A stretch of DNA of 64,000 nt from Pyropia yezoensis (taxonomy: Eukaryota > Rhodophyta > Bangiophyceae > Bangiales > Bangiaceae). The stretch is from assembly GCA_009829735.1 (NCBI GenBank), contig CM020620.1, forward strand, positions 10,475,420 through 10,539,419. The letters are read 5' to 3'. Position 1 is the stretch's first letter. Each line of letters starts with the position of its first letter. Both the position numbers and the translations under genes were made by a program. The notes under the pieces were generated by a model. It did not search any database and was not told the DNA's origin. It saw only the letters and a program-made list of their open reading frames with translations. Shown piece by piece: positions 18,584 to 39,727 of the stretch.

Positions 18584-19052
18584 TGTGGCAAAAACCTCTC
18601 GCGCACGCGGCACCCAAGTTGGGGCGGTGTACAAGGGCTGCCTCCCGTGTCGGGGGAACCGGAAGAAGTGCAAGTCGCACACACTCTATCCCTGTTGTGG
18701 GGCAATCCCCCCACTGACAAACAAGAAGATGGTGTGTGGTCCAACAGTTTCTTGGTCGGGACGGGGACGCAGGACTAAGCCCCGCTGTCCCTCCCCTTAT
18801 CCCCCCAGGGTCCCCTCAGAATCTCGCCACTCAGAATCTCCCACCCCAGCACCTGCCCACCGGGCCACACGAAAATTCAAGACGGTAAATGCAGAAAACC
18901 CTCAAATCCAAGTTGGATTTACTACTAAGCTAACTATCCCAAACTTAGGGAATATGGACCCAAATGCAGGGGGAGGAACGGATCAGGCTAGTTGCCTGCC
19001 GCCCCTTGCATGGCACGTGTTGCCCCCCTACCTGGGGGCCAATACTGCCACA
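18584..19052 (-). repeat. Element B 3' LTR (left copy)
   Basis: 469 bp, TG...CA termini, matching 38244-38712. On its internal side (19053-19067) is the polypurine tract, read on the minus strand. Confidence 0.96.
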
Positions 19053-19067
19053 CTCCCCTCTCCTCAG
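19053..19067 (-). promoter_or_regulatory. Element B polypurine tract
   Basis: The minus strand reads CTGAGGAGAGGGGAG directly before the LTR, a purine-rich plus-strand primer site for this element. Confidence 0.8.
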
Positions 19068-19390
19068 TTCCGACCGACCCGGTCGGGCTTGTGAGGGGGT
19101 GCGTAAACGCACGTCTCGGCGTTGGGGGCGCGACTTGCTGTCCCCCCTCGAGTACGTAACGCGGATGTGGAGGCGGTCACGTTGACCGCCCCTCTCCTCA
19201 AGCTTGCCCACTTGGCAGCTTGCTCTCCCCGGTTCTCACTTCACCACCACCACCACATCCCTTTCACCTTCCCCTGGGCCGCCCCACGCTGGGGAGGCCA
19301 CCCGTCTACCCACGATCCGAGTCCCCCTCAACTCGAGGAGGGTCTCGTGCCGCTGTAGCCAGGGCGTCTCTCCCCAACTTGGGGAGAGCC

Positions 19391-20966
19391 ATGGCGACCC
19401 CGGGGGTGGAGACGGACTCCCTCGATGAACGTATGGAGGACACCTCCTACGGTGCAGCGCCCGCCGGGACTTCCGGCGGGGGCTCCGCGATCGCTCCGGG
19501 GGATGGGACTCCCGCGTCACCCGGCTTTGGGTTGACGGCGGGATCTCCCCCGGAGGCGGGACAAGTTGTCCCGCGTGAGGCCTTGGGGCGGTGGTTTTAC
19601 CCCGCTTGGCCTCTGTATGAGGAGGGGTTGACTGTTCTTCGCTGTGGCCGACTTGGCACAGCGATGGGTCGGGTGTGGGACCGCCTACGGGAGAAGTATC
19701 CCCGTAGGGTCGGGTTCCCTGCCGGCTTCAGGACGGACCAGTTTGCCTTCCTGGACGATGATGAGGTCGAAGACGTACAGCGGGCCAAGGCCATGATGGA
19801 CCGCGGGGGAACTATCCCGGGTCCCGGCGACTTGCCTACCTTTACTTGGGACGCGGTGGCAACTCGCCCCCCGTACCTTCATGAGGCGGATCCGCACACT
19901 CATCACTTTGATGTGCGGATGGAGAAGGACTTCCGGCGAGGTCCCTACTTGGTGACCTCGGCTCAACTTGAGTTTCCGCAGCAGTCCGCTGCCAGTAAGG
20001 AGCAGTACTACCCGAAGAAACCCGAGTGGTGGCCTCAAGTGGAGGTCCCCTACGGGTTCCCGGCGTTGCTGCCACGGTTGCTCGACCACTTCGGCTCCGT
20101 CATGTTGACGGCTAGCCCAGATCACCTGGTGTGGGCCATGTTGGCCACCCAGTGGCTGCTCGAGGTCATGTCGACCTGGGTGTCCTGTGTCCAGCGGCGA
20201 GGGATGCTTTGGCATCTTCCCCTCCGGCTTATCCAAGGTTTGGAACAGCTCACCCCTCAGCTAGTTGCTGAGGGGTGCTCATCAGGACAACTCACTACTT
20301 GAGGAGATGCTCCGCCTCCACAAGTTTATCGAGTGGGAGAGCATTGAGCACAAGTTGCGCCGCCCCACTCGTGGGCCCAAGGACGATGGCGCACTTCGCC
20401 AGTTCGTATGGGTCGCTCGTGAACTTCACGACGGCCGTGTGGTCCTACGAGAGGGGTTGGGCATCGGGGACTACCCGTATGCCCCGGGGGTGGATCGCCA
20501 CACTGCGCCACCCGCGGACAAGGCCATAGTTATGGCCGTGCCCTCACATGATGACCATATGACTCAACCCACTGCGGGGGCCCCAAGTCGGGGTCGCAGT
20601 TACACCCGGCCACCGCCACCTCGGCGTGCCCCTCTACTTCCTCCTGTCCCCTACCAGCCGCACGGGGACATCCCGATTAGCGTGGCCGTTGAGTCGTCCA
20701 CCCCGGTGTCCCCCAACTTGGGGGCCACCCTCCTGACGGTATACCCCAAGTTGGTGTTACCGGCCACGCCTCTGACCTCAGAGATGATGATCACCACGTT
20801 GGTGCGCACCATATCCTGGTTGGCCGCGTCGACCGCAACCCTTCAAACTTCCGAGACTCCTCAACTTGAGGAGCGCGTTCGTACGGCAGTGTCGACCGCG
20901 AGTTGCGAGTCGGTGGCGGAGTTTATGACGGCCGAGTTGGCTCGCATTGGGGCTATTATGCCCCAG
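19391..20966 (+). pseudogene. Element B antisense accessory ORF, part left of element A
   Basis: Coding-like sequence on the plus strand, antisense to B's own gag-pol, starting MATPGVETDSLDERM. It is related to the antisense ORF of element A (28393-30840): both have PPYL, an FGSV block, then HLP 43-44 residues after the start of FGSV (RRGMLWHLP here, RQGRLFHLP there), then an LL..H...W block. No known domain is recognised; a Gag- or Env-like or regulatory role is open. The frame is broken by the insertion of element A and apparently by about one other change. Coding-like sequence resumes on the far side of A. Confidence 0.75.
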
Positions 20967-21329
20967 TGTAGCAATATGGTTGTCCGTATTGTGACCCTAA
21001 TATCAGGGGGGCTACTTCTAATCCTTAACTTTCAATTTGAGAGTCCGAACTGGTCACGGTATCTATAAGTTACGTATGACCAGAGGGACTTGCATCTTGG
21101 GGTGGAGGGTAGTTAGTAGTGTCTCCGAGGGTTTATAACGAGGGGGCCGGTGGCGAATCCACCGCCGGCCAAGGTAGAACAACAAACCCCTCCCATTTGG
21201 GCTCCCATCTTGGTCCCGTGGCTTGCGCTCCAAGGACAGCAACCTTGGCCTCCCGGTGACGTTGGTGCCGATCCCCCTTGGTGAGTGTTCCCTGAGAGTG
21301 GACGTGCGACGGATTCCTATTGTGCTACA
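20967..21329 (+). repeat. Element A 5' LTR
   Basis: 363 bp, TGTAGCA...TGCTACA, nearly identical to 31426-31788. Confidence 0.97.
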
Positions 21330-21330
21330 T

Positions 21331-21349
21331 TGGTGGAGCAGCAGGGGAC
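21331..21349 (+). promoter_or_regulatory. Element A primer-binding site
   Basis: TGGTGGAGCAGCAGGGGAC one base after the 5' LTR. Its complement ends in CCA, as a tRNA 3' end would. The same 19 nt occur at the equivalent place in element B. Confidence 0.85.
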
Positions 21350-21549
21350 GGGTTTCCGTCACCCTTGTGGTGACGCCGTCTTCGGCCCTGGCACACGGAT
21401 ATGGATCCGGTCCTTTTTCTTGTACTCGTGGTGTTGCAACCTGATCGATTGTGTTGAGCTTTTACCTGTGACTGTGACATACTGTTACTCTCCCCAATCT
21501 ACCCCCTCGCTCTCTTATTCGTGGTGATCGTTGCGTCGGTGGACTGATT

Positions 21550-23739
21550 GTGACTATGTCTACCCAAGAGACGGGGAACGTTCAAGATGACGGATCGGCG
21601 TCGACGCCGACTCCGGAGGTGACTACGGGAACCGGGATCGGGAACCCGATCGATAACATTGAGACGCCAATGCTTTCCGGTGCCGGATCGACGTTTGGCA
21701 CGGCTCGGACGGCAGGAGGCGGGGGCCCGCCTCAACTGTCGTCGACCGACCTCACTCCGCCGCCTCCTTCACCAGGGGATTCCCTGATGGCATCATTGGC
21801 CCGCATCGAGGCCCGGTTTTCCGGGCTCGACGCCCGTCAAGATCGGACGGAGGACGCAATGGCAGTGTTGATGTCAACACGGCACACGACGGGACCCCGT
21901 CGTGTTCCGCCCACACCGGTACGGTTCGAACCGGCCGGACTACTTTCGGAGTCCACCAGGGTCAATCCCGGGGTTGCTACTCCTGGACAACCCCCGGACA
22001 CAATGGGGTATGGGTCCGACTCGTCGGCAGAGTTGGAACGGAGTCACACGGAGCGATACGCTCGGAGCACCCGAAGCGGACTCCGCGGACACGACCCGGC
22101 GGATACGTACGCCGGGGGAGAGTCGGTTATTGGGGGAGGGGGTACCCTCTCGCAGTACCCCCACGACGAAGGAGGCCAGGCAACTCGGGTTCCCGAGGTG
22201 CCGACGCCTGAAGTACCATCTTCAGTGGTGGAAGCTATGACCGCGCAGGTAACTGCGAGCCTACTGAAGCGGATGGAATCCGATGAGTTCGCTCATCAAC
22301 TGGCTAAGCGACTGGATATCCAGGACGCTGACACGTAGATCGTCAACGAGGTCTTCCGGTCGGTTCTTACTCCGGAACGTTATCGTTTGGAGGACCGCTC
22401 TACCACCGTATCGGAATCGATGCGTAATACGTCGCATCGGGCGATCCGCTCTATGCAGACCCTTATGAAGGGAGTCCCTATGTTCGGGGGGCCGAACGGA
22501 CGCCCGTTGGCAGTCATCGGCTTCTTGACTAGCTTCAAGGCAGCCGCAGACAAGGCGCTCGTTAACGAGGGGCTGGCCCTGGAGATCCTCCCGTTCTTTG
22601 TTGATGAACGGGTGCGAGGCATTCTTCGCCAGGCATCCCCGATGCCGGGAATGAGGGTCGCGGCCACCCCCATGGATTACCGTGGGATATTGAAGGAGCT
22701 GCTGAGCAGCTACCTCAGTGAGGACAAGTGCGAGGACCACTATCGGGCCCTTCGCACTGCCACCGCCCAGTCCTGGGAGGATGAGGAGATGTTTGGACGC
22801 CGGATCCAAGAGCTCGACTACGAGCTGGGGAAGCTCCTCGGAGAAGGGGAGCTACGGGCCATCCTGTTCGCAGGAGTACCCAACTACGTGCGGATATCCG
22901 CACGGGGCGCCAACACGGCACGGACGAACTTCAGTCGACTGATGCATATGTGCAAGTCCCTAGGGGACGCCTACCGGGTTCTACACCCGGAGTGTGCCTT
23001 GGCCCCGAAGCCCAAGGGTGAGGGAGGCAAGCCCAGTCTTACCCCGGTACCGAGGCTAGAGAAGGTGGAACGTAAGGCCGCACCAGTACTGGTGGCGACC
23101 GAACATACCCCTATTGGTGAGGATGACCCTCTAGTCGACCATCAGGGCCACCTGTTGCTACCGGCGACGCCGGTGATTGATGAACATGGTACGGTAGCGT
23201 ACATCGCCCCGGCTGGAACCCAGTTCCAGGTCAACGAAGGAACGGGACGGCGCGTCCCGTATGTGCGGACTACGGGGTACTCCCCGGTGACGGGTAACCC
23301 TCACCAACCCTTGCCAACATGGGCGGTGCGCACGGAGGCACCTCCGCAGATTGCGGGCCGACCCAACCGGTTGGGGGAGTCCATGTTCCGGTTGACCCAA
23401 GGACCCAAGGCCTACCAGGGAGCAGGCACTCGGGCGCCCGAGGGAGGCAACCGTAGCTACGGGGCTACCCCTATGCGAACTCAAGGGGGGACCGGCACGT
23501 CCGGGTGTATGTTGTGTGGGGATCCCCAGCACTGGGTGTCTTCCTGCCCACTCATCCCCGAGGAGTCTCGGCGGGCAGCGGCGCAACGCAAGGCATCCAC
23601 CGGGGGGTATCCCGCCCGAGCACCCGGACCCGCACCGGGTAGGCAGCCAGCTCCAGGTGGAGTACTGGCCGTCGAGGGGGCACCTCCTCAGCCGGATGTC
23701 CCGGCGGACAGCACCCTACCAAGGGCGGGAAACGAGTAA
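21550..23739 (+). pseudogene. gag: Element A gag region
   Basis: Capsid/nucleocapsid region of the element. The N-terminal part is Thr/Gly/Pro-rich; the second part has a capsid-like helical stretch and one CCHC zinc knuckle (C-X2-C-X4-H-X4-C, CMLCGDPQHWVSSC) near the end. The region looks interrupted about once and is treated as a fossil. pol starts 8 bp downstream in another frame. Confidence 0.85.
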
Positions 23740-23747
23740 GAGGAAGG

Positions 23748-26700
23748 ATGACCGGGGGGCGCTGGGGTTACCCAAGCAAGCCACTCCGGAGTACCGCGGG
23801 GAAAGCCCCACGGAGAGCGCGGTTGAGCCGACGCCGCATCAACCCCCGGGTACACCTTCCGGCCCCGACGACACGGCGTCAGGGGATTGATGACCAACCT
23901 CCAAGGTTGGGAGGAGAGGACGGGAAGTCCCGTCACGTTGAACCAGACAAGGGCCCTGTTCAGGATGCCCGAGCTACACCGGATATCGGTGTAGGACATG
24001 TGTTGTTTACCTTGGAGAACTTCAAGGTATCAGCCACACTGGGGGTTGACCCCCAGTCGACACGATCGTACTACCCTGTACTGGACACAGGGGCTGGACC
24101 CAACCTTATCCGGAAGGATACCCTCCCGGACAAGTGGCTTCCACGAGTCAGAGTGACTCGGGGACCCACCATCAAGGACGCGAATGGTCGACTCATTCGT
24201 ACGACCGCAGCGATGTCGCTGCAGGTTACCATCGGGGATCTCACCACGGAAGTGGACTTCCTGGTATGTGAAACGCTGTCGGTGCCCTGCATACTGGGGT
24301 GCACCTTCATCAACGTTCACGTTGATGCAATCCGGCCAGGCCGGAGGACCGTCGAGCTTCAAGAAGCCGACGGGACGAAGCGAGGACACAAGGCTATCGT
24401 CAGGGACCTGACGCTACAAGGAAGCCACGTTAACGTGGCTGAGGTGTACGCAAGCGTCGAGCCGAAGACACTTCGGTTGGCCAAGCGAACTCGCTTTGAG
24501 CCGTTGTCAGAGACAGTCCTCCCGGTTAACTGCGACCTCGCAGGCATCTGCAGAGTCCAGTCCAACCTACGGACGTACAAGCGCCATGGGTTGACCATGG
24601 CCAACGGTCTCATAGACCTCCCAGCAGGAGGGTCGTCCCTCCTAGTGATGGCGAACTATCGCCGTAAGGCAGTCACCCTCCCGAAGGGAACTATCCTCGG
24701 GATTGCCGAACTCTACGAAGGAGATATCCTTACCCCTGATAAGGAAGGTCAAGTGGAACCACTTGAAGTACTGGCGGTCGCCGAGACCACCGAGCGACAG
24801 CAACCCGATGACGGGAAGCCTAACCCATCGGCGGCTCCGGCGGACCTGCCGCCAAAGAACCAAGAGGCCTTGAAGGCACTGGCCGAGGCTGACCTCGACC
24901 ACCTTCCCCCTTCGGTAGCCGAAGGGGTACGACGGATGCTAAGAAAGCATGACGTTATGTGGACAGGCGGGGCCTTGGGGACCATTGGGGCAACCCAACA
25001 TCGTATAGACCTGGTACCAGGCGCACGACCCGCCCGCTCACAACCGCACCGAGCGGGACCTATGCAACGAGAGATCGTTGATGGAGAAGTGAAGAGGATG
25101 AGTGAAGCTAAGGTGATCCGACCTTCGATGTCGGAATGGGGTGCCCCAGTCGTTATTGTGCCGAAGAAGGATCAAACCCCTCGGTTTTGCATCGATTATC
25201 GACGCCTCAACTTGGTTACCAAGAAGGACTCATACCCTTTACCAAGGATGGATGAATGCATCGACTCCCTGGGGGAGGCTACGGTGTTTACCACCATCGA
25301 CTGCAATGCCGGATACTGGCAGATCCCGGTGGCGGACGAGGATATCCCCAAGACGGCATTCGTCTGTCACAGTGGAGTGTACGAGTTCCTAAGGATGCCC
25401 TTCGGATTGTCCAACGCCCCCGCTACATTCCAGCGGGCTATCGACATCATACTGTCGGGGGTGAAGTGGCGTAACTGCCTAGTGTACCTCGATGACGTCA
25501 TCGTCTTCTCGCGTAACATGGATGACCATGTACAACATGTTGACGAGGTACTCACCCTCTTGAGGAACGCCGGGGTAACCCTGCGTCTGAAGAAGTGCGC
25601 CTTCTTCCAACAGACGGTCGAGTATCTGGGCCACCAGATAACCCCTGGTAAACTAGGGGTACTCGAAGCCAATACCCGGGCACTCCGGGATGCCCGGTTC
25701 CCTAACACCCAGACGCAGCTCAAGAGCTTCCTGGGAATGTGCAATGTATACCGACGGTTCGTCAAGGACTTCGCTCGGATAGCTAAACCGTTAACGGTTC
25801 TTACGAGCAGTACCTTACCCAAGGTACTCCAACCCCCTTCGCCTAGCGAAGAGGAGGCATTCGAGTCGCTGAAGCGAGCCCTACTAGCCCCACCCGTCCT
25901 TGCGTTACCGCATAGACGGGGTACCTTCGTCATCGATGTCGATGCGTGTGATACACAAGTGGCATGCACCCTGTTACAGGGAGAGACGTTGATAGGTACC
26001 GACAACGTTATCCCGGACCTACGTCCGGTAGGGTACTTCAGCCGGACACTCAACCCGGCTGAGCGGAACTATAGTGCCACCGAGCGTGAATGCCTCGGAG
26101 TTATATGGGCAGTGCAACTGCTCCGTCCATACCTGGAGGGCTCCAGGTTCATCGTGAGGTCCGACCACGAACCCCTACGATGGCTCCTCAACCTTGGTGA
26201 CAAGGATTCCGATAGCCATGGGAGGCTAGCCCGATGGAGGCTGAAGATGGCCGAGCACGACTACCGCACGGTGTATAAGGCTGGGTCAACCCACCACCTC
26301 GGAGACGCGTTGTCTCGACTCGACACCCCGAGCGGGGATACCCGCCCGGTGGACGAGGACATCCCGGTGGTACCGGTGTGCATGGTGGGTAATGCTACCC
26401 AGGGTATGGTTGACCATACCATGGCACACCTTGCGTGCCCATTGACCCTCGCGGACTTCCGCGAGGCACAGGCCAACGACGATGACTGTAGACGTCATCG
26501 TGCTAACCTCCTGGCCGGTACGGCCGGCATCTTCTCCGAGAACGAAGACGGACTCTTACACCGGCGGGCACCCGCCGATGGACGACATCAAGTCGTGGTT
26601 CCCGTGTCCTTACGGCAAGCCGTCATGGAACGAGAACATGAGAACCCTACAGCCGGACACCCGGGGGGTTCACGTATGTTCGCAGCAATGCGAAGGTTCT

Positions 26701-27914: not shown

Positions 27915-27960
27915 CAACCCAACCGACACCGACTTCGGCTGTTGGGGGGTGAGGCTCATA

Positions 27961-28085
27961 CCTACTAAGTAGGGTGTGACATGGTTACGGCAGACTTAGG
28001 TTTCTAAGTCAAATCAGACTTAGGTTTCTAAGTCGAACCAAGCTTAGGTAACTAAGTAGAGCTAAGCTTAGGTAACTAAGTAAAA
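27961..28085. repeat. Periodic hairpin array between pol and the antisense ORF
   Basis: Four short inverted repeats begin at 27993, 28017, 28042 and 28066, a 24-25 bp period. The first two have 7-bp arms (GACTTAG/CTAAGTC) around GTTT. The last two have CTTAG/CTAAG around GTAA. A fifth palindrome, CCTACTAAGTAGG, is at 27961-27973. The array lies between the convergent sense pol and antisense ORF. Confidence 0.9.
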
Positions 28086-28392
28086 CTTGAACCTTAATAA
28101 GTTAACTTAAAGGTAAAGGCTAACTCCGATAATATCGAAGTAACTAGGGAGCTTACACGGGAGGTTGACCTCCCCAAGCCAAGACACCAAGTGAGGGAGG
28201 ATGACCTCCCCAAGCATGAACCTACCGGAAGAAGTTGGACGGGAGGCAAGGCACCACTGCGCCAGAAGGGGTACTCCCCAGGGCAGCAAACAGAGGCAAG
28301 CAATGCCCCCAAAGGGGATGAGTTTATACTCACTACTACCCGGCTACCATAAGGGTTGCCGGGGCCCTCTCCCGCACAAACAATAGCACTCC

Positions 28393-30840
28393 TCAGTGGG
28401 TAGACCGACTGCCCGAGGGAGGCCACTCACGCGTAAGCGCGTAGACCTCCGTGCTCCACCGGTCGGCAACGTCACGACGGTCGACCACCCGAGTTACCTC
28501 GGTGCATAGCTGGACGAGGGTGCTGCGGCCAGCCTCCACGTCCTCCAGAGCTTTCTGGAGGCGGTCCAGCACGCCACCGAAGCAACGCGCTGACCCAACC
28601 AGCGCAGCACCTGGGGGGATATCCCCCCGGCTAACAGAGAGACCCCCACGCATTGCGCGGGTAACAAGTGCGTCAACGCCCTCATACCAGAGACGGGGAC
28701 CCCCGTCATGTAGGACAGGGGCGGGAGGTGACACTGGCGCAGCCAGAGGAGCCACAGGAGCCGACACGGCTACCACCGGAGCCGGTGGCACCTGATACGA
28801 GGCCCGGTAGGACCCTACCGAAGGGGCTCCACCGTAACCACGGCGGTACTCCGCCCGACGACGGGACACCTCACGCTCCCCACCCACAGAGCCCCACTCT
28901 CGGGGACGACGGCCAACCGCCGCCGGCATCGGGTTACCGAACCACGGAGCAAGGACCTGAAGAGGGTCATGGATAACCATGGGAATACCCAGGTCAGCAA
29001 CAGCCTCGGTGGATGCCCACCCATGGCAACTGGGCTCACCCGGCTGAGTACGCCGGACACGCAACGAGTGACGAGGCAAGGGGGAAGCCCCAGCCTGCGG
29101 GTCCCGGTACGGGGGAAGGGCCAACACCCCAGCCCAGTTCACGGCATTGTGAACAGCCAGCAGGGCCTCGAACTCCCGGGCCAACCCGGTCTTGGCGGCT
29201 ATCAGATCCACGCCCAACTGCGCGATGTGCCGACGGACACCCGTCGGAAGATGAAACAGACGACCCTGCCGGCGGACGGACAGCAAGAAGGATGAAGCCT
29301 GCCCGAGGGTAACCTCAAGGGTGAAGGTACCCTGCAACGGGTGGACCGGTCGCGAGGCCAACACACTCCCGAAGTAGCGAAGACAGGAGCCGGTGTCAAA
29401 CCGGAAAGCAGGGGCGGGTTCCCACCCCTCCTGCCATAGCGGCGGGCGCACGGGAGTGTGTACCGGAGCACGACCGTTGCCGGTCTGCAACGCACACGTT
29501 ATATCCGTGCGGAACGCATCCGCCATGACACCATGGTTACGTCGCCAACTCGACGCCGACTTCAACCCCGCCATGGGCGGGTAGGGAGCCGTCAACGACA
29601 GATACGGGGGTTCCCCCGGGTAGTAGTCAAAGTCGGGATACCGACCGGTACTGCCCACCGTCTCCCCAAACGCAACCGGCTCCGCCGCCGCCGCAATCCC
29701 CCGAGCACTAGCCGGGTAGTCAATCTCCCGCGGCAACGCGGGGGCAATCAGGTCGCAGACCCCGAAGTTGGGGTCGAGGTAGACCTCACCCCGTCCCACC
29801 CGGGTGCGCCAGAGCTGCGCATGCCGGTCGTCCGGCTGACTCAGGATCCAATGGTGTTCCACCCGGACCGCGTTCGGCTGGTTGACCAGCCGCACCAACT
29901 CCCGCTCCCAGCTCGAGTCCACCTTGACGCGCCGGGAGGATTCTCCACGGGGATGCACCAGGTGGAAGTCCACCCGCATACGCCCATCGGACTCCATCGA
30001 CTCTTGCACCGTGAGGCCTCGAGCCCGAGCCACCAAGTCGGACACCGACATGGCGGGTTGACCCGCCGCCACGGCGACGCCGCCACCCAACGGGGCAACC
30101 CGGGCAGGACCAGGAAGAATCGGGGGCGCCGGGGGACGCACCACCGGCAGAGGGGCCGACGTCGGAGATGGACGAGGCCGAGGAGGAAGAAGAAGGGCGG
30201 GCGCCCGCCCGGAGTAACTCCCGGTGTCAACCGCCATGGGAGAAGGAGCGTCTTGACCGCTCGACACCCGCGGCACCGCAGGTATGGTACCGGCGCCGGC
30301 ACCACCCGTCGGCGTAGCCCCCGCCTCGGAAGGGGAAGGCACTTGGACAGCCTCCGGAGCCGGAGCCCCGGCCGTGCGGACACCCGCACCGTCTTGACCC
30401 GCCGCACCGGGTGTCGCACCGCCACCACCACCCGCGTCAACGTCGGGACCGCCTCGAGGAGTCACCGCCCGGACACCCGGACCACCTTGACCAGCCGGAG
30501 TCGGCTGCGGGTCGCCACCTCCGCCGCAGGGCGGACCATCTTGAGGTAGCTGCAGTGAGCCGGCACCGGCACCAGGCTCCATCCGGGCAACCGGCAGAGA
30601 GGGGGTAGAAGCCGCCACGCGCGGTTGACCGCCGGGTTGACCTCCGGCCGACGGCACCGTCGTGCCGCTGCACACGGACGACAGTCCTCCGGCCGACAGA
30701 CGGACGGACACCGCAGGCTCGTCGTCGTCAGACGAGCTCACCCCGTAACGCGCGGCGTCGGGACCGACAGGCGCGTCGTCCTCCATCTCCTCCCCGATCA
30801 GGAGGTCTTCCTCCTCTTCAAGCACCTGGGGATAGGACAT
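28393..30840 (-). CDS. Element A antisense accessory ORF
   Basis: 816 aa from the ATG at 30840 (MSYPQVLEEEED); the frame is open upstream to 31122. It is encoded antisense to gag-pol, between pol and the 3' LTR. The N-terminal third is acidic and Pro/Ala/Gly-rich. The middle is globular-looking and holds the block shared with element B's antisense ORF (FGSV ... RQGRLFHLP, then LLAVHNAVNW). The C-terminus has a helical segment (FGGVLDRLQKALEDVEAG). No reverse transcriptase, protease, signal peptide or clear transmembrane segment was seen, so it is not a typical Env. Antisense ORFs are known from some plant Ty3/gypsy lineages. The function is unknown. Confidence 0.8.
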   Translation of the reverse strand: MSYPQVLEEEEDLLIGEEMEDDAPVGPDAARYGVSSSDDDEPAVSVRLSAGGLSSVCSGTTVPSAGGQPGGQPRVAASTPSLPVARMEPGAGAGSLQLPQDGPPCGGGGDPQPTPAGQGGPGVRAVTPRGGPDVDAGGGGGATPGAAGQDGAGVRTAGAPAPEAVQVPSPSEAGATPTGGAGAGTIPAVPRVSSGQDAPSPMAVDTGSYSGRAPALLLPPRPRPSPTSAPLPVVRPPAPPILPGPARVAPLGGGVAVAAGQPAMSVSDLVARARGLTVQESMESDGRMRVDFHLVHPRGESSRRVKVDSSWERELVRLVNQPNAVRVEHHWILSQPDDRHAQLWRTRVGRGEVYLDPNFGVCDLIAPALPREIDYPASARGIAAAAEPVAFGETVGSTGRYPDFDYYPGEPPYLSLTAPYPPMAGLKSASSWRRNHGVMADAFRTDITCALQTGNGRAPVHTPVRPPLWQEGWEPAPAFRFDTGSCLRYFGSVLASRPVHPLQGTFTLEVTLGQASSFLLSVRRQGRLFHLPTGVRRHIAQLGVDLIAAKTGLAREFEALLAVHNAVNWAGVLALPPYRDPQAGASPLPRHSLRVRRTQPGEPSCHGWASTEAVADLGIPMVIHDPLQVLAPWFGNPMPAAVGRRPREWGSVGGEREVSRRRAEYRRGYGGAPSVGSYRASYQVPPAPVVAVSAPVAPLAAPVSPPAPVLHDGGPRLWYEGVDALVTRAMRGGLSVSRGDIPPGAALVGSARCFGGVLDRLQKALEDVEAGRSTLVQLCTEVTRVVDRRDVADRWSTEVYALTREWPPSGSRSTH

Positions 30841-31413
30841 GTTAACGGGTGCAGAGTCCCCCGCGCCCACAAGCCGTCGACGGCTACGACCCGGTACGGT
30901 GGGATAACCGGGACGAGCCAGGGAAGCGCGGGCCCCCGCGCTTATGACCACAAACGGCCACGAGAAGCGCCACAAACACGCGGGTCGACCCACGCCCCAC
31001 GGGGCTACGAACGCGCTCCACCCAGGCACCTGGGCGGGACGGGGCCACCCCCACACACGGGGTAAGCAAGGGGGGTCACCCCCAACCGCCCCCACGCAAC
31101 GCGGGCAGCCCCCGCCCCCCACTCAATCGTCCACACGAGAGGGACCCCCCTACCACCAGGCACCTGGCGGCGGATCCGCTTGCACCACCCCTCGGAAAGC
31201 GGGGTCGTGAACAAAAACCCGCATCGGGAAATTAACGGTCCGGAAAACGGATCGTGTGTGTACCACACAAAGGGGGGCACCCCCCTCGGACAACCTCGAA
31301 AAGGGGTGTCTGTCGCGACGGGGCGCAAAGCCCCACCCGACGGGTAAACAGTCACGCGACCCACTTACATTCGGTAACCCGAATGCAACTCGACCCGGGG
31401 ACGGGCCGAATCT

Positions 31414-31425
31414 AAGGGGGGGATA
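31414..31425 (+). promoter_or_regulatory. Element A polypurine tract
   Basis: AAGGGGGGGATA immediately before the 3' LTR. Confidence 0.85.
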
Positions 31426-31788
31426 TGTAGCAATATGGTTGGCCGTATTGTGACCCTAATATCAGGGAGGCTACTTCTAATCCTTAACTTTCAATTTGAG
31501 AGTCCGAACTGGTCACGGTATCTATAAGTTACGTATGACCAGAGGGACTTGCATCTTGGGGTGGAGGGTAGTTAGTAGTGTCTCCGAGGGTTTATAACGA
31601 GGGGGCCGGTGGCGAATCCACCGCCGGCCAAGGTAGAACAACAAACCCCTCCCATTTGGGCTCCCATCTTGGTCCCGTGGCTTGCGCTCCAAGGACAGCA
31701 ACCTTGGCCTCCCGGTGACGTTGGTGCCGATCCCCCTTGGTGAGTGTTCCCTGAGAGTGGACGTGCGACGGATTCCTATTGTGCTACA
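31426..31788 (+). repeat. Element A 3' LTR
   Basis: 363 bp, differing from the 5' LTR at about two positions. It is followed by the target-site duplication CCCAG. Confidence 0.97.
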
Positions 31789-31793
31789 CCCAG

Positions 31794-32108
31794 CCAGCCC
31801 CACTTGGGCGTGGCAAACGTCGCGCGAGCCGGGCATACTCGCCTCCTCGCCGTCGTCGCCGACGCTCCCGGCGCTCTCCCTCCGTGTCGGAAAACGAGCT
31901 GTCTTACTCCGTCTCGGAGTCCTCTACTCCGTCAGTGTCGGAGTCGGTCCGGCGTCTGCGTCGGCAACTTGCGCGCAAGACTAAGCAGAAGGGCAGCCGC
32001 GGTCGTCGCCACTTGCGCGGTCTCGCCGCTCGCCTCCACGTGAGGGCGAGGGCCGTGGGATTGGAGAGTCTAGCATGCATGCCTAGTTGGCAGCTGCCTT
32101 TGTTGTGA
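31794..32108 (+). pseudogene. Element B antisense accessory ORF, part right of element A
   Basis: Coding-like stretch on the far side of the nested element, very rich in Arg and Ser. It ends 90 bp before the 3' end of element B pol, which is transcribed from the other strand. Confidence 0.6.
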
Positions 32109-32197
32109 GAGTGTGAGGGTTAGGGCTGTAGTTAAAAGCCACTCTGCGTACCACTTCGACTTGAAGCACTCTCTTGGCACTGTTGCTCGGCCTTCCC

Positions 32198-35100
32198 TCA
32201 CGTTGAGGGGGGGCTGTTAGGGTCCATCTCATTCCGGGCACAGTATGCCCGGACCTTCTCAGCGGGAAGGTCCTCCACATACTCCCACGTATCATCCTTG
32301 GCTTTGTAGCCGAACCAACGCACTCTCAACATGAGGCGGTTAGTGTCCTCATCCCAGCCGTGGTCGATGAACTTATCGAACACGTACTCCTGTGGGCCCT
32401 GTTTGGCCGCAGGCAGCGAGGGGAGGCGCCACGCTTCCAGCGCCCGCGCCCAAGCTGGGTCGCCTGCAGGCGGTGGTGCAACTTTGACCACGTCCTGTCC
32501 GTTCACTGTGCGGACCCCATCGTCACTTTCGATGGTGAAGCGCCGCCCATCAGTACGAAGGACCTGGTACGGCCCCTTCGTCTGGAATACCAACTTACCC
32601 CCAGTTGGGGTGTGTGAGTGTAACAGCACCCAGTCACCCTGCTCGGGGACGTGCTGAGCATTGCGCACCTTTTTGTCAAAGGTACGCTTGTAGCGCTTTT
32701 GTGCTTTGTCCATCTCAGCCCTGACTTTAGGGATGAGGTTTTCAAGCCTAGCAGCGAACTCCGCCTTACTCTCAGTAGGAGTAGGCGTACTGCCACCATC
32801 CTCCCTAGTTGGGAGCGGCCGCCGCACGGCAATAGACCGCACGCGACGGGGGGTCACAAATGCGAGGGGTACTTCCCCGGTAGATGAGTGAACCTGCGAA
32901 TTGTAGGCAGTGGTAAGAATAGAAATGTATTGGTCCCACGTTTTCACATGCTCACTCACATAGTGGCGCAGCTGCCGAACAATAGTTTTGTTGAAGCGCT
33001 CCACCTGCCCATTAGTTTGTGGGTGGTAGGGGGTGGCATAGTTTGCCTTAACCCCCAACATATCCAGCACTCCCTGAAACAGTACAGACGCAAATTGCGG
33101 TCCATTGTCCGGTAGTGTACTATCCGGAATGCCATACGCGGTAACCCAGTGATCTAGGAAGGCTGACACGACCGACATGGCCGTGATCTCTGCCAGTGGG
33201 ATCGCTCGCGTAAGTTTCGTGAAGCGATCGCAGATGACCAGGAGGTACTGGTTGCCCTCCTCGGTCACTGGCAGTGGCCCAACGATGTCCATCGCCAACG
33301 CGGCAAAGGGCTCCTTGGCCGGGAACAATAGCATAGCCGTAGTAGGCTGCCGTTCCATCAGACGGTTCTGCGCACAACTTGTGCAGGCAGCCACCAAACT
33401 GTAGCTGTCCACTACCATGGACGGCCAGTAGTACCTGGTCCTCAAGGTCTGGTACAGTTTACTAGACCCCAGGTGTCCACCTTTGGGAGCGTTATGCTCC
33501 CTCTCAAGGATACTGTCCTTGAGGGATGCGGGGACGACAAGTTGTTCGGTCCCCTGGAATACCCCACTCCTCATGAGGAGGCCATCGTCTCCCAGAAAGA
33601 ACCGCGTCTCCGCCACTGTATCCAGTGTATCCCTCTGCGACTTGCAGAAGGGATCCTCGGCCTGGGCCTTCACCCCCTCGGCCAGGGACAGGGGCAAGTA
33701 CTTCTTGTTCCCTGGCGCCTCGGGGTTCAACGCCTGACCCGAGCGCGTGACTACCCCCACGATGGGGATGTCCTCATCGACTGGGTTAGTGTCCAGCCCC
33801 TCGGTAGGTACCCGAGAAAGGCCGTCGGCAAGGGCATGTTGCCTGCCAGGTCGGTACTCAATATCAAAGTTGAAGGGTGCCAGTCGCACCCTCCACCGGT
33901 TGAGACGAGTGTTCGTACAATCCGTCTTAAAGATGAACTGCAACGCGCGGTGGTCACAGCGGATGAGGAACTTCTCACCCTCTAGGTAGTGACGAAGTGA
34001 CGTCACCGCCCACACCACTGCGAGTCCTTCCAACTCGGTGACTCCGTAGTTCTTCTCGGCCGAGCTCAGCCCCTTGCTGAAGTATCCCACCGGCAAGTAC
34101 TCCTTGTCCGGCTGCTGTTGAAGCAACACACAACCAATTTGGTCGTAGCTAGCGTCCACATCCAGGATGTAGTGGCCTCCCAACCTGGGAATAGCCAAGA
34201 TGGGGGGCTTCAGCAGAAGGTCCCGAAGAGTATCAAAGGATTCCCGCTCCACCCGACGTGGGGGAGGCAGGTTCTTCGGTAGCGTTGAGCTAACTAGCTC
34301 ATTCAACGGCTTCGCCACCTTGGCGAAGCCCTTGGTGAAACGTCGGTACACGTTACAGATCCCGAGGAAGCTCCTCATCTGGGTCTGGGTCCGGGGGTAC
34401 TGAGCCTTACGGATGGCCCTTAACTTCTTCTCGTTGACACTGAGACGCCCCGGACGGACAACATATCCCAAGTATTCCACCTCTTGAGTGAAGAGGTGGC
34501 ACTTACTCGCCTTCAGTGACACACCGGCGTCAGCAAGTAGCTTGAACACCTGGCCAAGATGGCCAATGTGTTCCTCCGGACTTCGGGAGAGCACAATGAT
34601 ATCGTCTAGGTACACCAGACAGATCTGCCACCGTACTCCGGCCAGAATCATGTCCATAGCATGCTGGAAAGTTGCCGGCGCGTTGCACAGTCCAAACGGT
34701 AGTCGCTTGCACTGGTAGGTACCACAGTGACAGGTAAAGGTAGTTTTATGCCTGTCCTCCGGGGCAATGGGAATTTGCCAGTACCCCGCGTTACAGTCCA
34801 GGGTAGAGAACACGTTTGCCTCCCCCAGAGAGTCCAGACAGTCGTCCATCCTAGGTAGGGGATAACTGTCCTTCACCGTGCTCTCGTTGAGCTCACGGTA
34901 GTCGATACAGAACCGGGGGGTCCCATCAACTTTGGGTACGATAACCACCGGACTCGCCCACTCGGCGTTGCTGGCCTCGATCACATCGAGGCCCTCCATG
35001 CGAGCAACTTGCTCCTTGGCGAGGGCCCTTGAACGGGGTCCTCCCCTATACGGTTGTTGGCGTAGAGGGGGTGCACCGGGCTTCAACTCGATCCGGTGTT

Positions 35101-36181
35101 GGGTAGCTCTCATGAGTCTCAATTGGCCATCCCACAACTTGTGATATTGGTCCAAGAGGCGTTCAACTTGAACCCTCAACCTGGGTGGAACACCCTCCAT
35201 GTTCACATGGGGCCGAGGAGAGGCGGCCGACTTGGCTTGGTGCTTCTCGTTTCCTGACTTCGGGTCGCTACTCGCGCCCGCATTGAGGGTGACCGCTACT
35301 ACCGGTCCCTCATATTGGTCGATATAGCCGAACTTGGCTCCCGACTTGAAATACTTGGGCGACAAGCTCAGGTTCATAACCTGGATCCTCAACGGGACTC
35401 CGGCTTTGGAGTCCATCGTGCCAAGGGCAACATGCACTTGATGCTTGCGAGCAAGACGGGGGTGAGGGTGCACCAACCCGTTCCCCGTATAATCAGTTAC
35501 AACGTCAACGTGCGCCACCGAGTTGGGGGGCAACGTGACTTTACGGGCTAAACGCAGGGTAGCGGTAAACCCTTCCCTCACAGAGCAAACAGGATTCGAC
35601 TGTGAGACTGTCACAGGAGCCTCAGACTTTCCCTTACCAAGGATGGGGATGGTTTCCCCATTCATCAACTTGACCCAATACTCAGGGCCACAAATCAAAG
35701 GCACTTGTGTTCCAACGTAAGGGGTACCCAGAAGCAGGGGTACCGATATATTCTCAACTACTCCATAGGTCACGTCGACCTCATGGGTCCCCAACCTAGT
35801 TGGTAGGGTCACGGCACCAAAGATGGGAAGTACCCCACCATTGATATCGATTAGATGGTCAGCTTTAGACCTGCAGCGTTGGAGCTTCATCTCCTTTTGT
35901 AATAGCGACTTGCGTATCAAGGAGGCTCCTGAATCGGTATCAAGTACGATACGGGCACAGCAGGCGCGGCCGGGGGCAAGTTGCACCCGTCCAGCCACCT
36001 GGAAGTTCTCACCCGTCAGAACCGCGATGACCCGACGTGGGTTTACGTTCTTGGGGAGTCCTACCCGAGGTGGGCGGACTCCCTTAGGTCGCCGCAGTAT
36101 CCGGCACGGTTGGTTCATCCTCTTGACCCACTTGGCCGAGGCTGCCGTTGTGAGCTTCGGACGGCCAGCTCCAGCGGTCAT
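32198..36181 (-). CDS. pol: Element B pol polyprotein (protease-RT-RNase H-integrase-chromodomain)
   Basis: 1327 aa. Protease-like region with DTDSGAS, reverse transcriptase with YLDD, RNase H, integrase with HHCC and DDE regions, and a chromodomain-like C-terminus (LRVRWFGYKAKDDTWE). It overlaps the end of gag by 4 bp (ATGA). Open throughout. Clearly the same superfamily as element A, but a different lineage by sequence. Confidence 0.95.
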   Translation of the reverse strand: MTAGAGRPKLTTAASAKWVKRMNQPCRILRRPKGVRPPRVGLPKNVNPRRVIAVLTGENFQVAGRVQLAPGRACCARIVLDTDSGASLIRKSLLQKEMKLQRCRSKADHLIDINGGVLPIFGAVTLPTRLGTHEVDVTYGVVENISVPLLLGTPYVGTQVPLICGPEYWVKLMNGETIPILGKGKSEAPVTVSQSNPVCSVREGFTATLRLARKVTLPPNSVAHVDVVTDYTGNGLVHPHPRLARKHQVHVALGTMDSKAGVPLRIQVMNLSLSPKYFKSGAKFGYIDQYEGPVVAVTLNAGASSDPKSGNEKHQAKSAASPRPHVNMEGVPPRLRVQVERLLDQYHKLWDGQLRLMRATQHRIELKPGAPPLRQQPYRGGPRSRALAKEQVARMEGLDVIEASNAEWASPVVIVPKVDGTPRFCIDYRELNESTVKDSYPLPRMDDCLDSLGEANVFSTLDCNAGYWQIPIAPEDRHKTTFTCHCGTYQCKRLPFGLCNAPATFQHAMDMILAGVRWQICLVYLDDIIVLSRSPEEHIGHLGQVFKLLADAGVSLKASKCHLFTQEVEYLGYVVRPGRLSVNEKKLRAIRKAQYPRTQTQMRSFLGICNVYRRFTKGFAKVAKPLNELVSSTLPKNLPPPRRVERESFDTLRDLLLKPPILAIPRLGGHYILDVDASYDQIGCVLLQQQPDKEYLPVGYFSKGLSSAEKNYGVTELEGLAVVWAVTSLRHYLEGEKFLIRCDHRALQFIFKTDCTNTRLNRWRVRLAPFNFDIEYRPGRQHALADGLSRVPTEGLDTNPVDEDIPIVGVVTRSGQALNPEAPGNKKYLPLSLAEGVKAQAEDPFCKSQRDTLDTVAETRFFLGDDGLLMRSGVFQGTEQLVVPASLKDSILEREHNAPKGGHLGSSKLYQTLRTRYYWPSMVVDSYSLVAACTSCAQNRLMERQPTTAMLLFPAKEPFAALAMDIVGPLPVTEEGNQYLLVICDRFTKLTRAIPLAEITAMSVVSAFLDHWVTAYGIPDSTLPDNGPQFASVLFQGVLDMLGVKANYATPYHPQTNGQVERFNKTIVRQLRHYVSEHVKTWDQYISILTTAYNSQVHSSTGEVPLAFVTPRRVRSIAVRRPLPTREDGGSTPTPTESKAEFAARLENLIPKVRAEMDKAQKRYKRTFDKKVRNAQHVPEQGDWVLLHSHTPTGGKLVFQTKGPYQVLRTDGRRFTIESDDGVRTVNGQDVVKVAPPPAGDPAWARALEAWRLPSLPAAKQGPQEYVFDKFIDHGWDEDTNRLMLRVRWFGYKAKDDTWEYVEDLPAEKVRAYCARNEMDPNSPPST

Positions 36182-38148
36182 TCGTTTCCCGCCGACTTGG
36201 CGTCCGAATCTGAGGGCGAAGCGGAAGACGACGAGTCCGAGGACGACGTGTCCGCCTCCTCCGCCGAGGGTGTGGCGACCGCGACGACCGGTCGAGACCC
36301 ACCCTCGCGGCGTGAACGTACCTCGTTCGTAGCCGACTTCTTACTCGCATTCCGAACAAGTTGTTGGATGCGTTTACTCAACTTGGGGCAATCATATGCC
36401 CAGTGTCCATCGGAGTTGCAGTTCCAACACAGATTGTCAGTTCCCGGAGGGGTCTTCCCGACTGGGGAAGACGAAGAGGTACCCTGGGAAGTTCCCACGG
36501 CAGCTACCACCCTTTCCTTGCGGATTCGGCGTGCCTCTCTCAACTCTCTGGCCTGGCGCGCCTCCACACGTTCCTTGGCCAACTCGGCCTGACGCTCCTG
36601 GCGTTGTTCCTCCCGCAACTTGCGGTAGGCCTCACCTCTGCGGTAAGCGAACCTTGCCAACTCGGCCAGGGTCGCCCGGGCAGTGTTATGCTCCTGGGTC
36701 TCCATCCGGACTGACCAATGGAGTCCCTCCACAAACCGACTCTTCACCACAGCATGTGGATGAAGAAACCCACAAAGATTGTTGAGCTTACGAACTCGCT
36801 CCGCAAAGGACAACTCGTCCTCCGCCTCTTCCTGATGGGCTTGCGTAAACTCCTCAACTTGAGAAGCCAACGCTGCTTCATCCACCATGGCTCTCAACAA
36901 CCAGTTGACGGGCTCCAAATAGGACGTCACCTCACCAGCGCCTCCACTTGAGGAGCTGGGCATGACGGACATAAGTTCTGTCCGCAGGTCCCCCTTTGTG
37001 AATTCCTGTAGCATATAGAACGCCATGCCTTCACTTATGGCATTGTCGTCACAGGCTTTTGTGAAACTACGTAGGAACTCAAAGACACGGAGGCGGGGAG
37101 TTCCATCCCACTCCGCTTTGTGCCCAAAAGAGTGAAGTGCATTCTTCTTGGCACGGCCCATGGCTCGGGCCTGGACAGGACCATAAGCCACCGACTTGTT
37201 GTGGAGGGCGTGGGTCTCACAATGAAAGATCCTCTGGTAGACCGGGTTGGCTACCTGGATCTTGGGCGGCACCTCACGTTGAGGGAACAACCGCTGTGGC
37301 ACTGGGGTAAGTTGACCCTCAGTGCCCATAGTCTGGCGCGGCGCGCTTGGTGTAGCCGCCGGCGTTTCCGGGGGAAACTCCCCCGTGAAGGGCGTACGCC
37401 CCACCGAGTATGGTGTGGCTCCCTCGTTGGGAGTCACAGGTGTCGCCCCCTGTTCGGGGCGACCTGAGATAGGCGTAAGGAGGGATTCCCCCTGCGCCTG
37501 CGGGCTCGAAAGCCCCAATCCGGTCTGGACATTAAGGCCATCTGGCAAACTCGCCACAATCTGATTCAGAATAGTATTCGTCATCGTGACCACCAGGTCC
37601 GGCAAAGTCTGCCGCAACACATTGGTCGCCTCCCGACGGACAGTTTCCGCGAGGAGTGGATTGTCGTCTCCAGTTGAGTCTCGGTCCGCCTCCGGGAGTC
37701 CACCTGAGGGATAACCACGTTCCTCAGTGGTCTCAACCGGGGGCATGTGCGCGAGCCCATCGCCGACCAACGGAGGTCCGCCGTCCTCCGAAAGCCTAGT
37801 TGGCGACGGCTCCAAGCCAAAATTGGCTCCAACCCGAGTGGAACCCGCGGGGACAGTCCTCACCCCTTGGGACGTTCCCGTTGAGCTTACCACACGGTGG
37901 CCAGACTTCGGCCCACCCACATCAGAAGTGTCACCCGAGTGAACTCCCGACTGAGTCGGGGTGGCCTGTTGCCCGCCCGCACTTCCAGTCCTGCTGGCTT
38001 GAGGGACCTCTAGCTCCTCTGCGACCCCAGGTAAACCCACCTGTGTCTCACCAGTATTCGAAGGCACTGAAGTACATGCGTCACCCGTGTACTCCCCGGA
38101 CGACGGGGGGTCCGAGCTAGCCATGTTGGCTGACGATCCGTATGACAC
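36178..38148 (-). CDS. gag: Element B gag
   Basis: 656 aa, with a Ser/Thr/Gly-rich N-terminal third, a capsid-like helical region, a basic Arg/Glu-rich helix and one CCHC zinc knuckle (CWNCNSDGHWAYDC) near the C-terminus. It is translated before pol, with a 4-bp ATGA overlap. Confidence 0.92.
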   Translation of the reverse strand: MSYGSSANMASSDPPSSGEYTGDACTSVPSNTGETQVGLPGVAEELEVPQASRTGSAGGQQATPTQSGVHSGDTSDVGGPKSGHRVVSSTGTSQGVRTVPAGSTRVGANFGLEPSPTRLSEDGGPPLVGDGLAHMPPVETTEERGYPSGGLPEADRDSTGDDNPLLAETVRREATNVLRQTLPDLVVTMTNTILNQIVASLPDGLNVQTGLGLSSPQAQGESLLTPISGRPEQGATPVTPNEGATPYSVGRTPFTGEFPPETPAATPSAPRQTMGTEGQLTPVPQRLFPQREVPPKIQVANPVYQRIFHCETHALHNKSVAYGPVQARAMGRAKKNALHSFGHKAEWDGTPRLRVFEFLRSFTKACDDNAISEGMAFYMLQEFTKGDLRTELMSVMPSSSSGGAGEVTSYLEPVNWLLRAMVDEAALASQVEEFTQAHQEEAEDELSFAERVRKLNNLCGFLHPHAVVKSRFVEGLHWSVRMETQEHNTARATLAELARFAYRRGEAYRKLREEQRQERQAELAKERVEARQARELREARRIRKERVVAAVGTSQGTSSSSPVGKTPPGTDNLCWNCNSDGHWAYDCPKLSKRIQQLVRNASKKSATNEVRSRREGGSRPVVAVATPSAEEADTSSSDSSSSASPSDSDAKSAGNE

Positions 38149-38222
38149 GGTCCAAGCCCACCGTTCCTCTGAGACAGAGGGTCCCCTACACCCGGGTGCA
38201 CCCAGAGGTAAAGTTTACCACT

Positions 38223-38241
38223 GTCCCCTGCTGCTCCACCA
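38223..38241 (-). promoter_or_regulatory. Element B primer-binding site
   Basis: On the minus strand it reads TGGTGGAGCAGCAGGGGAC two bases after the 5' LTR, identical to that of element A. Confidence 0.85.
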
Positions 38242-38243
38242 AA

Positions 38244-38712
38244 TGTGGCAAAAACCACTTGCACACACGACACCCAAGTTGGGGCGGTGTACAAGGGCTG
38301 CCTCCCGTGTCGGGGGAACCGGAAGAAGTGTAAGTCGCACACACTCTATCCCTGTTGTGGGGCAATCCCCCCACTGACAAACAAGAAGATGGTGTGTGGT
38401 CCAACAGTTTCTTGGTCGGGACGGGGACGCAGGGCCAAGCCCCGCTGTCCCTCCCCTTATCCCCCCAGGGTCCCCTCAGAATCTCGCCACTCAGAATCTC
38501 CCACCCCAGCACCTGCCCACCGGGCCACACGAAAATTCAAGACGGTAAATGCAGAAAACCCTCAAATCCAAGTTGGATTTACTACTAAGCTAACTATCCC
38601 AAACTTAGGGAATATGGACCCAAATGCAGGGGGAGGAACGGATCAGGCTAGTGGCCTGCCGCCCCTTGCATGGCACGTGTTGCCCCCCTACCTGGGGGCC
38701 AATACTGCCACA
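38244..38712 (-). repeat. Element B 5' LTR (right copy)
   Basis: 469 bp matching 18584-19052 with about nine differences. It is followed on the plus strand by the target-site duplication CCACG. Confidence 0.96.
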
Positions 38713-39178: not shown

Positions 39179-39727
39179 CAGCAGCTACCGCCGCCGCTCG
39201 GCCCCTGCGGCTGATCTGTCCCCGACAGCGGTGATGGTCGTGGCGGTTCTGGTGGCGCACGCTGGGACGGCGGGGCGGTGCTCAGGTGGCGGTAGATGGA
39301 GTGCAACACGCGCTTGGCAATGGGCTCCTGCCGCCCCATACGCCGCTCATCGTCGTACCACCGCTTGTGGCCCACCAGTGTGATGCCGTTGCCCACCGAC
39401 GAGCGCCACAGGTAACCGCCGTTGCAGCCATTGGTGTTGTCCCTTCGACGCGCCGACGCGACGTCGAGGGCCGCGGCGTTGCGGATAACGTCCTCCCGCG
39501 CCCACTGCAGTAGCTGTGCGATGGGCGCGGAGGCGGGCTTGGGCCGCAGCGTCTCGGCAAAGAGGCCGCCACCGCGGCGAGGAGGAGATGCACCCCCACG
39601 CCACGGTGACGCCGGTTGAGGCAGCCGATGGGGGGGAGCGTCAGGTGGAGGGACCAGCCGGGGCGGCGGAGGTGCGGCCCGTCTCGCTTGCCGTCGCGGC
39701 GCACAAAAAAAGAACGATGAGGAGCGC
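39179..39727 (-). pseudogene. Duplicated 5' fragment of the 11973-15095 gene
   Basis: Matches 14167-14798 at about 98% in the same orientation, but lacks an internal ~84-bp stretch bounded by short GCGCCGC-type microhomology. Only a fragment of the gene is present, with no downstream exons. It is probably a segmental copy and not functional, although the frame stays open through the copied block. Confidence 0.85.

What the first reader, a model, noticed from the sequence alone, without database searches (positions are those of the whole stretch)
18584..38712. Two nested chromoviruses of different lineages share a related antisense accessory gene
Elements A and B each carry, between pol and the 3' LTR, a large ORF on the strand opposite to gag-pol (28393-30840 in A; 19391 onward in B). 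The two antisense products are related: PPYL, an FGSV block, HLP 43-44 residues after the start of FGSV, and an LL..H...W block, in the same order. gag and pol of the two elements are clearly distinct lineages, so keeping the antisense gene suggests a selected function. Antisense ORFs are known in some plant Ty3/gypsy clades; a conserved family in what looks like an algal genome may be undescribed. No Env, RT or protease motif was seen.
Basis: partly seen in the sequence, partly recalled or inferred. Interest (0 to 1): 0.75.

Follow-up and report, generated by a model that had tools for sequence, protein, structure and literature searches.

The report
Conserved antisense gene in seaweed retrotransposons
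Two families of jumping genes in the genome of a red seaweed that matches nori carry the same kind of extra protein gene, written backwards relative to their other genes and preserved by natural selection, which points to an unknown but useful job in their life cycle.

Summary
Confirmed. Element A (20967-31788, plus strand) lies inside element B (18584-38712, minus strand); both are Ty3/gypsy-type LTR retrotransposons. Each carries, between pol and the 3' LTR, a large gene on the opposite strand: A's from the ATG at 30840 to 28393 (815 codons); B's from 19391, broken here by a frameshift and by A, but intact (576 aa) elsewhere in the genome.

The proteins are homologous in a ~170-residue core: profile-profile E 1.3e-5, score 42 against at most 20 in 100 column shuffles; only the antisense/antisense frame pair stands out (z 8.9). 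The genome matches Pyropia yezoensis. Of 20 A copies picked by pol, 20 carry the gene, 14 open. Core pN/pS is 0.16 in A and 0.42 in B; other frames give 0.95-2.9, except one wobble-sharing frame (0.34 in A, 0.56 in B) that in A is full of stops. So the protein is under purifying selection.

No known domain or fold was found. Antisense accessory ORFs are known in plants and a fungus; this protein family, and a red algal host, I did not find in print. Function is unproven; a nuclear regulator is my best guess.

The parts
20967..31788 (+). Element A, complete LTR retrotransposon inserted in the antisense gene of element B; duplication CCCAG on both sides
20967..21329 (+). 5' LTR of A
31426..31788 (+). 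3' LTR of A (99.4% identical to the 5' LTR)
22387..23739 (+). gag of A, weak zinc knuckle
23748..27914 (+). pol of A: protease, RT, RNase H, integrase, weak chromodomain
28393..30840 (-). Antisense gene of A, 815 codons from ATG to stop (stop-free frame reaches 31122)
29125..29664 (-). Core of the A antisense protein (residues 487-666 of P0001), the part shared with B and the most constrained in the pol-picked copies
18584..38712 (-). Element B, interrupted by A; duplication CCACG on both sides
38244..38712 (-). 5' LTR of B
18584..19053 (-). 3' LTR of B (98.1% identical)
36178..38148 (-). gag of B, CCHC zinc knuckle
32198..36181 (-). pol of B: RT, RNase H, integrase, chromodomain just under cut-off
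19391..20299 (+). Antisense gene of B, codons 1 to about 302, from the ATG to the frameshift
20292..20966 (+). Antisense gene of B, second piece, up to the insertion of A
31789..32108 (+). Antisense gene of B, last piece on the far side of A; the match to P0006 525-576 ends near 31943, the stop-free frame runs on to 32105

Best explanation
Both elements descend from a Ty3/gypsy element that already had a third gene, written antisense between pol and the 3' LTR, and both have kept it. Shown: the position, the strand, many intact copies, homology of the cores, and purifying selection on the protein. Inferred: descent from one three-gene ancestor; an antisense transcript that starts in or just inside the 3' LTR and runs towards pol. 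The product is an accessory protein: a constrained, probably helical core between fast-changing, proline-rich or charged ends; B's C terminus is arginine/serine-rich like a nuclear or RNA-binding tail. I think it most likely acts in the nucleus on its own element, regulating transcription or silencing of the element or handling of its RNA or DNA, as proposed for plant antisense ORFs.
For: Gene in place in 30 of 30 A loci picked by the antisense protein, the window's copy included, in 20 of 20 A copies picked by pol with 14 open over at least 815 codons, and full length in 3 of 4 B copies picked by pol. No stop in 44 of 50 scored A matches and 74 of 76 scored B matches; both are best-match lists and so favour intact copies. 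pN/pS in the 20 pol-picked A copies: core 0.16 [0.09-0.26], residues 360-735 0.22 [0.15-0.31]; other frames over 360-735: 1.51, 2.18, 0.95, 0.34, 2.90. The 0.34 frame shares the wobble positions and has 6-12 stops in each of the 20 copies. In the first set of 30 loci, biased by how they were chosen, residues 360-735 give 0.24 and the C-terminal part of pol 0.23. B-type copies (9): core 0.42 [0.34-0.49]; other frames 1.12, 1.36, 0.97, 0.56, 1.34. Homology. Divergence of the antisense protein (24%) like that of gag (25%) fits joint descent. Basic RS-rich tail of B.
Against: No transcript, promoter or localisation data. The stretch upstream of the antisense ATG is the most variable of five regions compared (pi 0.0207; spacer 0.0167, LTR 0.0131, pol end 0.0118, ORF 0.0111), so a conserved own promoter there is not supported. 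A has no comparable RS tail. N- and C-terminal parts show no convincing A-B similarity, and one HMM search with the A family missed B. Structure models are too poor to use. Whole-protein pN/pS is only moderate (0.44 in A, 0.49 in B).
Confidence: 0.5

Rival explanations
1. The antisense product is a particle or replication cofactor (a second Gag-like or chaperone protein), not a nuclear regulator.
For: It diverges at the same pace as gag (24% against 25% identity). The core is predicted helical in both models, at low confidence.
Against: No zinc knuckle or Gag family found. Antisense orientation would separate it from the gag-pol RNA, which is odd for a structural protein (inference). B's tail is RS-rich.
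Confidence: 0.22
2. The protein matters little; the antisense RNA itself regulates the element, for example as double-stranded RNA feeding small-RNA silencing.
For: Antisense transcripts with such roles are discussed for other elements in PMC7264820 (part 2 read).
Against: Selection acts on the amino acids: pN/pS 0.16 in A's core and 0.42 in B's. Similarity stands out in one frame pair of 36. The ATG is kept in 48 of 50 loci, the window's copy included.
Confidence: 0.08
3. The two antisense genes were acquired or exchanged separately (recombination between elements), not inherited from a common three-gene ancestor.
For: The N-terminal part differs between A subfamilies: L050 and L053 resemble P0002 there. 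Only the core is shared between A and B.
Against: A recent swap would leave much higher identity than 24% (inference). Position and orientation are the same, and divergence matches gag.
Confidence: 0.15
4. A host gene captured by the elements.
For: Accessory genes of retroelements are sometimes captured host genes (PMC7264820, part 1).
Against: No host gene or other-organism relative turned up: three protein searches gave 4, 2 and 10 hits (the last list repeats P0006), and the only organism named by a source is Pyropia vietnamensis (in 11 and 36 only the roughly 8000 candidates sharing most words were scored). Pfam is empty at E 1 for 7 of 7 relatives tested.
Confidence: 0.05

Closest known systems
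Antisense accessory ORFs (aORF-3R) of plant Ty3/gypsy elements: Grande gene23, RIRE2, Retand ORF4
   Same: Third gene between pol and 3' LTR, antisense, kept in most copies, conserved across families (PMC7264820, parts 1-2 of 3 read; PMC11963269, passages).
   Different: Retand's antisense proteins carry the Transposase_28 domain (PF04195); none is found here. Retand is a non-chromovirus lineage reported only from Eudicotyledons and Liliopsida. Here the host is a red alga and Pfam recognises no family. The plant proteins themselves were not compared.
Boty of Botrytis cinerea with antisense gene brtn
   Same: Antisense extra gene in a gypsy element outside plants (named in PMC7264820; passages of PMC8365987).
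   Different: The original paper and the sequence were not seen, so no comparison was made.
Antisense gene of HTLV-type retroviruses (HBZ; name and bZIP domain recalled)
   Same: Antisense gene read from the 3' LTR side; a regulatory role for retroviral antisense genes is discussed in PMC7264820 and PMC11963269.
   Different: No bZIP or other known domain here; antisense transcription not shown.
Env-like third ORFs
   Same: Same place, between pol and 3' LTR.
   Different: Opposite strand; no transmembrane stretch.

Membership tests
Antisense accessory ORF of Ty3/gypsy elements (aORF-3R, as a kind) | Lies between pol and 3' LTR, antisense to gag-pol | tested here: met
   Window; 30 of 30 A loci have LTR and pol on the two sides, the window's copy among them; 6 of 6 B loci L031-L036, the top six by score, have LTR and pol
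Antisense accessory ORF of Ty3/gypsy elements (aORF-3R, as a kind) | Present in most copies and conserved like the other genes | tested here: met
   20 of 20 A copies picked by pol, 14 open; 3 of 4 B copies picked by pol; pN/pS. Picks leaned to copies with complete pol
Antisense accessory ORF of Ty3/gypsy elements (aORF-3R, as a kind) | Transcribed antisense from its own promoter (reported for Grande) | not testable with these tools
   No RNA data
Antisense accessory ORF of Ty3/gypsy elements (aORF-3R, as a kind) | Nuclear product (reported for Grande) | not testable with these tools
   Only an RS-rich basic tail in B
Retand antisense gene | Transposase_28 domain PF04195 | tested here: not met
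   No such hit in Pfam for P0001, the two B pieces or seven relatives
Chromovirus | Chromodomain at the C terminus of integrase | tested here: inconclusive
   B E 3.1e-5, 24.2 bits against cut-off 25.1; A E 0.042, 14.2 bits; the two C termini align over 35 residues at E 8e-5
Chromovirus | RT in the chromovirus clade | not tested
   No reference RT set on hand
Env-like third ORF | Sense orientation and transmembrane segments | tested here: not met
   Antisense; no 19-mer above 1.6 in 3 of 3 proteins
HTLV-type antisense gene (HBZ, recalled) | bZIP domain (recalled) | tested here: not met
   No bZIP in Pfam

The most novel reading that the evidence does not exclude
A whole group of red algal Ty3/gypsy elements has antisense expression of a third gene as a founding feature. 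Its new protein family acts in the nucleus against host silencing or as copy-number control, an invention independent of the antisense genes of flowering plants, fungi and retroviruses.
Probability: 0.3. Interest if true: 0.75.

Novelty: new member of a known kind. Interest (0 to 1): 0.52.

Why it matters
Antisense accessory ORFs of LTR elements are described mainly from flowering plants and have no settled function. Here is a protein family in a red alga, with at least 150 scored pol matches for each of two lineages whose pol is only 40% identical, and codon-level evidence that the protein is selected. It makes the question 'why do LTR elements keep an antisense gene' testable in a lineage far from plants and fungi, and it marks conserved core residues to test.

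Tried and rejected
Chance ORF: rejected for A (0 of 1000 shuffles); for B's first piece 3 of 1000 reach it. Similarity by composition alone: rejected by shuffles, frame test and column shuffles. A sense-strand gene in the same DNA: the one competing frame has 6-12 stops in each of 20 copies. Relatives in viral contigs (5 scans) and prokaryote genome contigs (2 scans): none confirmed. Solved structures by sequence: best E 0.093 with the A profile and 0.0086 (a flagella entry, C-terminal stretch) with the mixed profile; both judged chance. Fold search with the A model: best E 3.5, meaningless at mean pLDDT 36; the B model (31.9) was not searched.

Results against the reading. hmmsearch with a profile of four A proteins did not find P0006: nothing at E 0.001, and the top eight rows were all shuffled sequences out of 3000. 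The first hhalign gave only 34% probability. In the better one the A alignment is thin (Neff 1.3), and one direction aligns only 84 columns, the other 173. P0007 against the A proteins gave p 0.002 to 0.37. C- and N-terminal segments showed no convincing similarity (best p 0.03, 15 tests). In the frame test one wrong pair has a higher raw score (142 against 118) but z only 2.8. The codon-usage score puts the antisense frame first but only narrowly in A (-0.025 against -0.088 in the core, -0.182 against -0.197 in the N-terminal part); in B it is clear. A sub-threshold Pfam hit of P0001 (DUF6214, E 0.088) was ignored. The first alignment of 30 loci was not oriented; its identity figures were not used. 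For one search P0012-P0016 were left out, and of the fetched A loci only three were used.

Full report
What is there. Two complete Ty3/gypsy-type LTR retrotransposons are nested. B (18584-38712) runs on the minus strand; its LTRs are 98.1% identical and it is flanked by CCACG. A (20967-31788) runs on the plus strand; its LTRs are 99.4% identical, it is flanked by CCCAG, and it lies inside B's antisense gene. Both have gag and pol open. Just inside the 5' LTR they share the stretch TTGGTGGAGCAGCAGGGGAC, presumably the primer binding site. Their pol proteins are 39.7% identical over 1316 residues and their gags 25% over 220, so they are distinct but related lineages. Chromodomains are weak: B just under Pfam's cut-off, A well under it.

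The antisense genes. In A the frame 28393-31122 (-) has no stop for 909 codons; 1000 shuffles that keep dinucleotides reach 512 at most. For B's first piece (380 codons) 3 of 1000 shuffles reach as far. A's ATG at 30840 is ATG in 48 of 50 A loci, one of them the window's own copy. In B the gene starts at 19391, has one frameshift near codon 302, is interrupted by A at 20966, and its tail resumes beyond 31788. A public protein, P0006 (576 aa), is 96% identical to B's first piece and is encoded without a stop elsewhere in this genome.

Are they related? blastp gives E 7e-8 over 204 residues in a two-sequence comparison. Smith-Waterman scores 119 for P0001/P0006; 1000 full shuffles reach 88 and 1000 local shuffles 95. 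Of 36 frame pairs of the two regions only the antisense/antisense pair is exceptional (z 8.9, next 3.3, 100 shuffles each); one other pair has a higher raw score, 142, but z 2.8. A profile of 8 A-type cores against 13 B-type cores gives E 1.3e-5, probability 80%, score 42.2; 100 column-shuffled versions reach 20.3 and the reversed one 14.9. That direction aligns 84 columns, the opposite one 173 (E 1.9e-5, probability 78%). An earlier, shallower comparison was weaker (E 4.4e-4, probability 34%), and one HMM search with the A family missed B. The shared part is about residues 487-666 of A and 133-319 of B. The ends show no convincing similarity.

Where it comes from. The relatives with a named source are hypothetical proteins of the red alga Pyropia vietnamensis. 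The window's genome has 107,475,971 bases, with contigs of 43,592,136, 34,331,705 and 29,385,039. The Pyropia yezoensis paper (PMC7423979, passages seen) reports scaffolds of 43.6, 34.3 and 29.4 Mb and says LTR elements dominate its repeats. I take the host to be P. yezoensis; this is an inference from sizes and relatives.

How many copies, and do they keep the gene? B antisense: 76 scored, 76 full length at 96-100%, 74 without a stop. C-terminal part of pol: 150 of 150 scored at 98-100% for A and 150 of 150 at 96-100% for B. The antisense lists favour intact copies. I therefore took 20 A copies by hand from along the pol list: 20 of 20 have the antisense gene in place and 14 have it open over at least 815 codons. 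My picks leaned to copies whose pol frame is complete (17 of 20 show the full 1423 codons), so 14 of 20 may be above the average of the family. For B, four copies with complete pol that I did not see in the antisense lists gave 3 intact and 1 interrupted. The first seven rows of a search with P0007, divergent B-type copies (about 51-75% identical over their main pieces, apart from one 90% piece), were also fetched; 4 of 7 show B-like pol on the opposite strand within the stretch.

Selection. In the 20 pol-picked A copies pN/pS is 0.16 (95% bootstrap 0.09-0.26) in the core, 0.22 for residues 360-735, 0.71 in the N-terminal part, 0.48 in the C-terminal part and 0.44 overall. The other five frames over 360-735 give 1.51, 2.18, 0.95, 0.34 and 2.90. 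The 0.34 frame shares its third positions with the antisense frame and has 6-12 stops in each of the 20 copies, while the antisense frame, read in the reference columns, has none in 19 of 20; 4 of the 20 have frame-shifting gaps there. In 30 loci chosen by the antisense protein, a biased set that includes the window's copy, residues 360-735 give 0.24 and the C-terminal part of pol 0.23. For B, nine sequences including the seven divergent ones give 0.42 in the core and 0.49 overall, against 1.12, 1.36, 0.97, 0.56 and 1.34 in the other frames. The core shared by A and B is also the best conserved of the well-covered parts between A and its relatives: 96% to P0002 and 65% to P0003, against 62% and 45% in the N-terminal part. 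These signs agree on one selected domain.

What it may do. Pfam finds no family above its cut-off; the only listing is DUF6214 for P0001 at E 0.088. Both AlphaFold models are poor (mean pLDDT 36 and 32) but show a similar order of helices around HLP; the two alignments share rows, so this is not independent. No transmembrane stretch was found. B's C terminus is arginine/serine-rich. The gene is tail to tail with pol and heads in from the 3' LTR. By analogy with Grande, whose antisense gene has its own promoter and a nuclear product, and with retroviral antisense genes (both as told in PMC7264820), I favour a nuclear accessory protein acting on the element itself. That step is inference.

What is known. 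Antisense ORFs between pol and the 3' LTR are reported for Grande, RIRE2, Retand and PvRetro13 and for fungal Boty (PMC7264820, parts 1-2 of 3 read). In Retand 97% of clusters carry the TRP28 domain, and the lineage is non-chromovirus and reported only from flowering plants (PMC11963269, passages). Searches for algal or red algal cases and for chromovirus cases showed no title or abstract opening that I recognised as this; only the listed rows (11 to 20 per search) were seen, and one with possible bearing, on Ectocarpus (PMC12477816), was not opened. Subscription papers and supplements were not seen, so the absence is weak. The kind is known; the family and the host group appear new.

Noticed in passing
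23731-23754 (+) and 36172-36190 (-): gag and pol are separate frames. In B the gag stop and the pol start overlap (ATGA); in A the pol ATG lies 8 bases after the gag stop. This suggests termination-reinitiation rather than frameshifting, unusual for Ty3/gypsy (recalled).
   Followed up: partly
21330-21350 and 38223-38243: A and B share a 20-base putative primer binding site although their pol genes are only 40% identical; which tRNA it matches was not found (no tRNA gene in the window).
   Followed up: partly
14168-14690 and 39180-39705: A 97% direct repeat flanks B at both ends, about 4.9 kb apart without B, lacking TG..CA ends. The frames that cross the two copies encode a 155-residue stretch 94% identical. 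Possibly another mobile element into which B jumped.
   Followed up: partly
L050, L053: Copies of A whose antisense gene has a different N-terminal part, resembling P0002: possible module exchange between subfamilies.
   Followed up: partly
G000, list: Several A pol copies lie in pairs roughly 5-15 kb apart on the same strand, some with one complete and one truncated pol, as if elements recombined or inserted next to each other (not counted).
   Followed up: no
15394-15787 and 56565-56956: 394-base direct repeat, 95% identical.
   Followed up: no
2534-8284 (-) and 59251-62970 (-): Host-type genes flank the region: a large ankyrin-repeat protein and Golgi complex subunit COG3.
   Followed up: no
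45027-45468: Minisatellite-like tandem array; successive self-matches are spaced by about 17 bases.
   Followed up: no
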